A stretch of 34,494 nucleotides of DNA from Halanaerobium salsuginis. GTDB taxonomy: Bacteria > Bacillota > Halanaerobiia > Halanaerobiales > Halanaerobiaceae. The number at the start of each line of letters is the position of its first letter. Position 1 is the first letter of the stretch. Under the pieces are notes generated by a model. That model made no database searches. It was not told the origin of the DNA and saw only the letters and a program-made list of their open reading frames with translations. Positions 32,730 through 34,494 of the stretch are shown one piece after another. The stretch lies in assembly GCF_900114545.1 (NCBI RefSeq), contig NZ_FOTI01000031.1, positions 1 to 34,494 on the forward strand, read 5' to 3'. Position numbers and translations under genes: made by a program.

Positions 32730-32758
32730 TTGACTATTGAATTGATTTAGTGTATAAT
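32730..32758 (+). promoter_or_regulatory. Sigma-A promoter of the first trpP gene
   Basis: TTGACT (32730-32735) and TATAAT (32753-32758) with a 17-bp spacer make a near-consensus promoter. Transcription would start near 32765, giving a leader of about 100 nt before the ATG at 32866. That is long enough for leader control. Confidence 0.85.
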
Positions 32759-32799: not shown

Positions 32800-32893
32800 A
32801 AGCCAAGCAGAGTTATTAGATAGGTGAGAAGTTTAGCAAAAAACAAAAAGGAGAGATGAGTTGAGATGAGAACAAAAGATTTAGCTCAGGCAG
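32800..32893 (+). promoter_or_regulatory. TRAP-like NAG triplet array over the ribosome site and start of the first trpP
   Basis: GAG triplets start at 32853, 32858, 32863 and 32868, exactly 5 nt apart, covering the Shine-Dalgarno and the ATG at 32866. They continue as AAG 32876, TAG 32882, CAG 32887 and CAG 32891 inside the gene. More NAG triplets occur upstream (for example 32808, 32817, 32821, 32826, 32834). Eleven or so G/UAG triplets with 2-3 nt spacers are the known binding site of TRAP, which represses trpP translation in Bacillus. Confidence 0.65.
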
Positions 32894-33393
32894 CTTTATT
32901 AGTAGCGATTGGATTTATTTTACATGCTTTTTTCCCGCCAATTGTGTTGGGAATGAAGCCTGATTTTGCATTAGCCATGATGTTTATTTTACTTATTATC
33001 AAACAGGATTTTAAATTAGGCTTTTTAGTTGCAGTAGTAACAGGGATTTTTACAGCTTTAACTACTGGTTTTCCTGGCGGACAGATTGCAAATATGATAG
33101 ATAAGCTGGTTACTTTTTTAATTATTTATCCATTAATACCTTTAATTCTAAGGCTGAATTCCAAAAAGGTAGCAGTAGGAATTATAACTGCTTTTGGCAC
33201 AATTTTAAGTGGCACTATTTTTCTCGGATCTGCTGCATTCATCGTTGGGTTACCAGGACCTTTTGCAGTTCTATTTACCACAGTGGTTTTACCAGCAGCT
33301 GTTATAAATACAGTTACAGCTGTAATTGTGTTTAGTGTAGTTCATTTTGCAATTGGTGTAGAAAAAGTAGGCGAAAGCAGTTCGCAAATTTAA
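32866..33393 (+). CDS. trpP: Tryptophan transporter TrpP-like (ECF-type S component), copy 1
   Basis: A 175-residue hydrophobic protein with about five or six membrane helices. The start MRTKDLAQAALLVAIGFILH, the motif LGMKPDFALAMMF and TGIFTALTTGFPGGQIANMI (about 63-82) match TrpP (YhaG) of Bacillus, the tryptophan uptake protein. ATG 32866 lies within the GAG triplets; AAAGGAGAGAT is the ribosome site. A second, very similar gene follows 137 bp later. Substrate is inferred from family and from the TRAP-like leader. Confidence 0.85.
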   Translation: MRTKDLAQAALLVAIGFILHAFFPPIVLGMKPDFALAMMFILLIIKQDFKLGFLVAVVTGIFTALTTGFPGGQIANMIDKLVTFLIIYPLIPLILRLNSKKVAVGIITAFGTILSGTIFLGSAAFIVGLPGPFAVLFTTVVLPAAVINTVTAVIVFSVVHFAIGVEKVGESSSQI

Positions 33394-33412
33394 TTAGCAA
33401 AGTATATTTTTA

Positions 33413-33439
33413 CAGGTTCTATTAAATAGAACCTGTTTT
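33413..33439 (+). terminator. Intrinsic terminator after the first trpP
   Basis: CAGGTTCTAT (33413-33422) pairs perfectly with ATAGAACCTG (33426-33435) around TAA and is followed by TTTT. The T-run is shared with the -35 box of the next promoter, an unusually tight junction. Confidence 0.8.
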
Positions 33440-33466
33440 GACATTTTAGCAGCTCTGAGATATAAT
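33438..33466 (+). promoter_or_regulatory. Perfect consensus sigma-A promoter of the second trpP gene
   Basis: TTGACA (33438-33443) and TATAAT (33461-33466) with exactly 17 bp between match the full consensus. Transcription would begin near 33473, a few bases before the first NAG triplet of the second leader. Strong constitutive initiation with leader control is the expected logic. Confidence 0.9.
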
Positions 33467-33475
33467 AATAACAAT

Positions 33476-33557
33476 TAGATTAGTATTTAGTTGAGATGAG
33501 AAAAAAATATGAGGGAGAGATGAGTTGAGATGAGAACAAAAGATTTAGCCCAGGCAG
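33476..33557 (+). promoter_or_regulatory. TRAP-like NAG triplet array on the second trpP leader
   Basis: TAG or GAG triplets start at 33476, 33481, 33488, 33493 and 33498, then 33511, 33515/33517, 33522, 33527 and 33532, then AAG 33540, TAG 33546, CAG 33551 and CAG 33555. The step is mostly 5 nt. The downstream half repeats the pattern of the first gene's leader base for base from the Shine-Dalgarno to the seventh codon. The ATG (33530) lies within it, so bound TRAP would block ribosome entry. Confidence 0.68.
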
Positions 33558-34060
33558 CACTGTTAGTAGCAATTGCGATGATTTTAAGGACTTTGACACC
33601 ACCAATACTTTTAGGGATGAAACCAGACGTTACTTTAGCTATGATGTTTATTATCTTGATTATTAAAAAAGATTTTAAATTAGGCTTTTTAGTTGCGCTG
33701 GCGACAGGTATTTTTACAGCTTTAACTACTACCTTTCCTGGTGGCCAAGTAGCAAATATAGTTGATAAATTGCTGACTTTTCTGATAGTCTTTAATTTAA
33801 TTCCGCTTTTTGCTAAATTTTTAACTAACAAGTTATTAGCTGCAGTAACTACAGCAATTGGAACTATGATTAGTGGAACTTTATTTTTAACGGTAGCTTC
33901 TTTGATAGTTGCTTTACCAGCTCCATTTACAATTTTATTTACCACTGTTGTGTTACCGGCAGCAGTAGTTAATACTGTTACAGCTGTAGTTATTTTTAGT
34001 GTGGTTAGTTTTGCAATGGATGTTGAGTATGGGAGTAGTAGAGAAAAAGAAGCTTTATAA
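33530..34060 (+). CDS. trpP: Tryptophan transporter TrpP-like, copy 2
   Basis: A 176-residue paralogue of the preceding gene: same start MRTKDLAQAALLVAI, same LGMKPDVTLAMMF and the same TGIFTALTTTFPGGQVANIV region, with changes spread along the protein and a different C-terminus (EYGSSREKEAL). It has its own promoter and triplet leader, so it is independently expressed. The pair looks like a tandem duplication including the leader. Ribosome site is GGGAGAGAT. Confidence 0.85.
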   Translation: MRTKDLAQAALLVAIAMILRTLTPPILLGMKPDVTLAMMFIILIIKKDFKLGFLVALATGIFTALTTTFPGGQVANIVDKLLTFLIVFNLIPLFAKFLTNKLLAAVTTAIGTMISGTLFLTVASLIVALPAPFTILFTTVVLPAAVVNTVTAVVIFSVVSFAMDVEYGSSREKEAL

Positions 34061-34337: not shown

Positions 34338-34494
34338 ATGTTTGTTCCCAACAGTCACCAGCAGTTAAGTCTTTACGATTCATTTAAAGATTTGCCCAAA
34401 TATCTACAGGAATATCTTTTAGATTCCTGGGCTGATACTTTTCAGGAAATTATCTTTCCTGCAATTGATGAAGAACGCTTTGCCGTACTCTACA
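34338..34494 (+). CDS. IS1182-family transposase, N-terminal fragment
   Basis: From ATG 34338 an open frame runs off the right edge, giving 52 residues: MFVPNSHQQLSLYDSFKDLP then KYLQEYLLDSWADTFQEIIF and PAIDEERFAVLY. This is the characteristic N-terminus of IS1182-family DDE transposases. AAAGGA lies 7 nt upstream. The catalytic domain and the right end are outside the window, so whether the element is intact cannot be told. The left terminal repeat was not located. Confidence 0.82.
   Translation, partial: MFVPNSHQQLSLYDSFKDLPKYLQEYLLDSWADTFQEIIFPAIDEERFAVLY

What the first reader, a model, noticed from the sequence alone, without database searches (positions are those of the whole stretch)
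32800..33557. TRAP-like triplet arrays control two tandem trpP genes
Both trpP leaders have NAG triplets, mostly 5 nt apart, running through the Shine-Dalgarno and into the first codons. This is how TRAP represses trpP in Bacillus. Finding it twice in tandem in a diderm firmicute suggests duplicated tryptophan-responsive uptake.
Basis: partly seen in the sequence, partly recalled or inferred. Interest (0 to 1): 0.72.

Follow-up and report, generated by a model that had tools for sequence, protein, structure and literature searches.

The report
Tryptophan-sensor sites on twin transporter genes
Two neighbouring tryptophan-uptake genes in a salt-loving Halanaerobium each begin with an RNA docking site for TRAP, the tryptophan-sensing ring protein known from Bacillus, so uptake is very probably shut off when tryptophan is plentiful; the mechanism is known, and the news is only its presence in this group and on two old gene copies.

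Summary
Both ORFs (32866-33393, 33530-34060) are TrpP (PF17099). Both leaders carry GAG/UAG triplet arrays running through the Shine-Dalgarno and start codon; four triplets with exact 2-nt spacers occur at both sites, against 0.08 expected per window in shuffles. The genome encodes TRAP (MtrB, E 2e-37). The strict pattern hits five regions of the 3-Mb genome: both trpP leaders, the trpE-operon leader, trpS, and one stray. Every trpP in the genus has an array. Across relatives, 37 of 41 trpP leaders in TRAP-bearing genomes are significant against 0 of 6 in TRAP-less ones (Fisher p 2e-5, related genomes); five of those six carry a T-box instead, with a UGG (Trp) specifier in the four printed alignments. 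The two copies are old paralogues (66% identical), retained, lost or reordered across the genus while keeping the site; here each seems to have its own promoter. Best explanation: tryptophan-bound TRAP blocks translation initiation, as at B. subtilis trpP. Binding, direction and tryptophan dependence are inferred, not measured. New member of a known kind. The trpS array is not conserved in relatives.

The parts
32730..32758 (+). putative promoter of trpP copy 1 (TTGACT-17-TATAAT, 11 of 12 consensus)
   Evidence: consensus scan; consensus match only
32810..32836 (+). upstream half of TRAP-type array 1: five GAG/UAG triplets
   Evidence: coordinates; the bipartite layout (upstream block, A-rich gap, core) recurs in most leaders of the genus
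32850..32884 (+). core of array 1: SD GGAG, then GAG triplets through the start codon (ATGAG), plus in-frame TAG at 32882
   Evidence: the core is nearly invariant in 18 leaders of genus and family
32866..33393 (+). trpP copy 1 (paralogue A), 175 aa
   Evidence: PF17099 E 1.4e-47; groups with the A-type copies in the tree
33412..33439 (+). terminator-like hairpin after trpP copy 1: 11-bp stem then UUUU
   Evidence: fold -13.8 kcal/mol, z -5.0
33438..33466 (+). putative promoter of trpP copy 2 (TTGACA-17-TATAAT, perfect consensus)
   Evidence: consensus match only
33476..33513 (+). upstream part of array 2: TAG, TAG, TAG, GAG, GAG, gap, GAG
33515..33548 (+). core of array 2 over SD and start codon, plus in-frame TAG at 33546
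33530..34060 (+). trpP copy 2 (paralogue B), 176 aa, 66% identical to copy 1
   Evidence: PF17099 E 3e-47; clade B, bootstrap 100 / SH-aLRT 100

Best explanation
Both leaders are binding sites for the tryptophan-activated ring protein TRAP (MtrB), encoded elsewhere in this genome. When tryptophan is plentiful, TRAP with bound tryptophan winds the GAG/UAG triplets around its rim, covers the Shine-Dalgarno and start codon, and stops ribosomes from starting trpP translation; when tryptophan is scarce TRAP does not bind and both transporters are made. Shown here: the triplets, their overlap with SD and start, a TRAP gene with its RNA-contact residues, conservation, and co-occurrence with TRAP. Inferred: binding, tryptophan dependence, direction of the effect, and transport of tryptophan by both paralogues. 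The two copies are old paralogues that share this control; in this species each seems to have its own promoter, with a terminator-like hairpin between them.
For: TRAP gene in the genome, E 2.1e-37. It aligns without gaps to crystallised Bacillus TRAP over residues 3-72, E 1e-28; the residues matching the B. subtilis RNA contacts K37, K56, R58 (named from memory) are conserved. Strict array pattern in the whole genome: six hits, two of them the trpP leaders, two overlapping in the trpE leader, one at trpS, one stray. Arrays significant at all 16 trpP genes of the genus. TRAP+ genomes 37/41 significant, TRAP- 0/6, Fisher p 2e-5; ATGAG at or near the start 35/41 against 0/6, p 9e-5. The same layout in 23 Bacillaceae trpP leaders, the family in which this control was demonstrated (Yakhnin et al. 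2004, title as cited in PMC8058203). T-boxes upstream of trpP in TRAP-less genomes and none upstream of trpP in the TRAP+ loci scanned. 26 of 27 trpE upstream regions in this and related genomes carry significant arrays.
Against: No binding, expression or transport data. Each leader alone is only p 0.004-0.006 against shuffles. Array 1 has a 14-nt gap, so fewer of its triplets are ideally spaced than in most trpE leaders. The GGAG-to-ATG distance is 12 nt, rather long. Four TRAP+ leaders (G019, G035, G085, G096) miss the 0.02 threshold. Relatives are not independent samples, so the Fisher p-values overstate significance, and the exclusion of distant family members was made after seeing scores.
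Confidence: 0.93

Rival explanations
1. The triplets are a by-product of purine-rich ribosome-binding sites and conserved coding sequence (ATGAGA = Met-Arg), without TRAP binding.
For: GAG is part of an SD, and the genus is closely related, so conservation is partly ancestry.
Against: Arrays extend 40-60 nt upstream of the start; trpP leaders in TRAP-less genomes lack them (0/6); the second codon changes between Arg (AGA) and Ser (AGT) while ATGAG stays; within the core the changes seen in the triplets around the SD and before the start are mostly G to T at the first position, which keeps a TRAP triplet.
Confidence: 0.03
2. TRAP acts at these leaders by transcription attenuation rather than by blocking ribosomes.
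For: TRAP attenuates the B. subtilis trp operon; the trpE leader here has an array followed by a terminator.
Against: No terminator-like site was found between array and start codon at either trpP; the array overlaps SD and start; the leader folds are not clearly more stable than shuffles (z -0.8 and -1.8).
Confidence: 0.03
3. Only copy A is a tryptophan transporter; paralogue B has shifted to another aromatic compound but kept tryptophan-responsive control (compatible with the best explanation for the leaders).
For: Clade B has a consistent N-terminal signature (AMILRxLTPP in place of GFILHAFFPP) and full support.
Against: Two species keep B alone, with a TRAP array (G007, G011), as expected if B can do the job; no functional data.
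Confidence: 0.2

Closest known systems
Bacillus subtilis trpP (yhaG) translational control by TRAP (Yakhnin et al. 2004)
   Same: TrpP family gene; GAG/UAG triplets overlapping SD and start; TRAP encoded in the genome; the Bacillaceae leaders examined here have the same layout.
   Different: Two tandem paralogues, each with a site; bipartite array with a 14-nt gap in copy 1; no anti-TRAP match in this genome; nothing tested at the bench.
TRAP-controlled trp operon leader (trpEDCFBA)
   Same: TRAP target with GAG/UAG triplets; present in this genome upstream of trpE and followed by a terminator.
   Different: Attenuation geometry, whereas the trpP sites sit on the ribosome-binding site.
Trp-specific T-box leader (RF00230) on trpP
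   Same: Senses tryptophan supply for the same gene in TRAP-less relatives.
   Different: RNA-only, reads tRNA charging; absent upstream of both genes here.

Membership tests
TRAP (MtrB) translational target | TRAP gene in the same genome | tested here: met
   PF02081 match E 2.1e-37, C21:64293-64496
TRAP (MtrB) translational target | about 9-11 GAG/UAG triplets separated by short spacers, 2-3 nt preferred | tested here: met
   10-11 non-overlapping triplets per leader; four-triplet core with exact 2-nt spacers in both; upstream spacers less regular, with one 14-nt gap in copy 1
TRAP (MtrB) translational target | array overlaps the Shine-Dalgarno or start codon | tested here: met
   GAG within GGAGAG and within ATGAG
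TRAP (MtrB) translational target | site occurs with TRAP and is missing without it | tested here: met
   37/41 against 0/6 leaders; T-box instead in five of the six
TRAP (MtrB) translational target | tryptophan-dependent TRAP binding and repression | not testable with these tools
   needs binding and reporter assays
TrpP tryptophan transporter family | PF17099 match above the curated cut-off | tested here: met
   162 and 161 bits against cut-off 27.2
TrpP tryptophan transporter family | tryptophan uptake by the encoded protein | not testable with these tools
   needs an uptake assay, for copy B above all
T-box leader | RF00230 match upstream of the gene | tested here: not met
   no Rfam match in the window or around either trpP

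The most novel reading that the evidence does not exclude
In Halanaerobium TRAP governs a wider set than in Bacillus: two diverged TrpP paralogues, one possibly with a new substrate, and, in this species alone, the tryptophanyl-tRNA synthetase gene trpS, newly brought under TRAP by an array gained just upstream of its ribosome-binding site.
Probability: 0.25. Interest if true: 0.5.

Novelty: new member of a known kind. Interest (0 to 1): 0.36.

Why it matters
It places a well-studied Bacillus RNA regulator in halophilic anaerobes, with sequence evidence that the same transporter gene is governed either by TRAP or by a tryptophan T-box according to which the genome carries. The duplicated gene, whose paralogues diverge in protein yet keep the RNA site, gives a natural test of how an RNA-protein site constrains the start of a coding region.

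Tried and rejected
TRAP control of trpS as a conserved trait: the array at trpS (C89:14663-14680) is strong in this genome (p 0.001) but no other trpS leader of the genus that was examined has one, so it is a recent gain or chance. T-box on these trpP genes: none. Anti-TRAP: no match in this genome; nearly all matches in relatives lie in frames of about 340-400 aa, which I take to be DnaJ zinc fingers (not annotated here). Loose triplet pattern with 2-4 nt spacers: 36 hits against 52 for the reversed control, so uninformative genome-wide. One Rfam T-box in a TRAP+ locus (L029) lies downstream of trpP and does not count. The first leader listing had some loci on the wrong strand, put right. The primary paper on B. 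subtilis trpP is not held. No paper on TRAP in Halanaerobium turned up in the open library, which lacks most subscription journals, so the novelty of the occurrence is not established.

Full report
What is there. The window is a contig of a Halanaerobium-like genome (nearest named relatives by TrpP are Halanaerobium). It ends with two tandem ORFs, 32866-33393 and 33530-34060. Both are TrpP, Pfam PF17099, 162 and 161 bits against a cut-off of 27, the only two in the genome. Their leaders hold GAG/UAG triplets: eleven marks at 32810-32884 and twelve at 33476-33548, one pair overlapping in each. The core GAGatGAGttGAGatGAG is identical in both, has an exact 5-nt period, and covers the end of the SD and the start codon. 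An in-frame TGA at 32857-32859, read directly from the sequence, leaves ATG 32866 as the start.

Chance. The strict four-triplet pattern occurs twice in the window, 0.08 expected. In the whole 3-Mb genome it has six hits: the two trpP leaders, two overlapping hits in the trpE leader, one before trpS, and one stray on the antisense strand of an ORF. The pattern read backwards has eight hits in the genome, so the count alone is unremarkable; what is not chance is that five of six fall just upstream of trp genes. A looser pattern is uninformative. Shuffle p-values for the two leaders are 0.004 and 0.006.

The regulator. The genome encodes TRAP, 73 aa, aligning gap-free to crystallised Bacillus TRAP. 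From my knowledge of the B. subtilis protein, the RNA contacts K37, K56 and R58 correspond to K35, K54 and R56 here and are conserved.

Comparative test. TRAP was sought in 101 genomes (68 positive) and trpP in the same set (49 positive). After leaving out distant PF17099 members (the second copies in G039 and G042, and G033, G081, G100), 37 of 41 leaders in TRAP+ genomes have a significant array against 0 of 6 in TRAP- genomes. I made these exclusions after seeing the scores. G033 and the two second copies would have counted as TRAP+ without a significant array, G100 as TRAP+ with one, and G081 as TRAP- without one, so the contrast stands. The genomes are related, so p = 2e-5 is a guide only. 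23 Bacillaceae leaders show the same layout, and a Clostridium and an uncultured clostridial trpP lack arrays.

Regulator exchange. T-box leaders precede trpP in TRAP-less G018, G024, G059, G084 and G095, and in Clostridium sartagoforme and an uncultured clostridial contig. In the six alignments printed the codon at the specifier position reads UGG, that is Trp (my reading of the alignments; that of G059 was not printed). G079 and G081 had neither an array nor a T-box in the stretch held. No T-box lies upstream of trpP in the TRAP+ loci scanned. A T-box study of 2008 already marked Firmicutes with TRAP in its table of T-box use (PMC2494555), so the principle of the two as alternatives is not new.

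The duplication. A protein tree separates a B clade with full support from the A-type copies. A alone is found in G001, G003, G005, G006, G008 and G010; B alone in G007 and G011; both in tandem here and in G002 (A then B) and in G004 and G009 (B then A). G003 is an incomplete genome, so absence there is weak. All keep arrays. In this species a stable hairpin with a U-run and a perfect sigma-70 consensus lie between the genes, suggesting separate transcription.

Mechanism. TRAP on the SD and start codon is expected to block ribosomes, as shown for B. subtilis trpP (Yakhnin et al. 2004, title as cited in PMC8058203; review PMC4347634). No terminator-like site lies between array and start, so attenuation is less likely. 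Binding, direction and tryptophan dependence are inferred.

Wider regulon. The trpE leader carries an array followed, some 180 nt on, by a terminator hairpin (fold -19.1 kcal/mol, z -5.0). 26 of 27 trpE upstream regions in this and related genomes have significant arrays, the exception being a second TrpE-like gene in G007. In relatives, arrays also precede trpB, trpD and a DAHP synthase-trpE cluster next to mtrB (trpB, trpD and trpE named from Pfam domain and sequence).

Verdict. It is a new instance of a known mechanism in a modestly interesting evolutionary setting.

Noticed in passing
L008:1495-1525 (own genome C89, upstream of trpS): A six-triplet array (TAGttgTAGttGAGttGAGtaTAGaaatTAG) lies just before the ribosome-binding site of trpS in this genome only; no other genus member examined has it.
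   Followed up: partly
trpE leaders of the genus, e.g. L170, L173, L175: After the array come two terminator-like hairpins, the second preceded by a conserved stretch (CTCTTACTAATAACTACGGTCAGG); the window's species seems to keep only the second.
   Followed up: no
L034, L035, L031 (trpP of G057, G053, G058): The array runs into the coding region, so that the protein's first residues (MRRVELRRVIES in G057) are spelled largely by GAG triplets.
   Followed up: partly
L238 (G012 C5): A trpE-type array precedes a 4Fe-4S protein and an aldehyde:ferredoxin oxidoreductase in a relative in which no trpE was found.
   Followed up: partly
L246 and L247 (G025): Two copies of a gene pair (an ORF resembling a SAM methyltransferase by eye but without a Pfam match, and a tautomerase) start with a dense GAG/UAG array over the start codon; a possible unusual TRAP target.
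   Followed up: partly
L236:286-323 (G007): Array-like triplets ahead of nadA (quinolinate synthase) in one species; may be chance.
   Followed up: no
L078 (own genome C84): A second, diverged trpS copy without an array or an Rfam T-box nearby.
   Followed up: partly
window 34339-34494: An ORF running off the contig end after trpP copy 2 looks like the start of a transposase (from reading the sequence, not searched).
   Followed up: no
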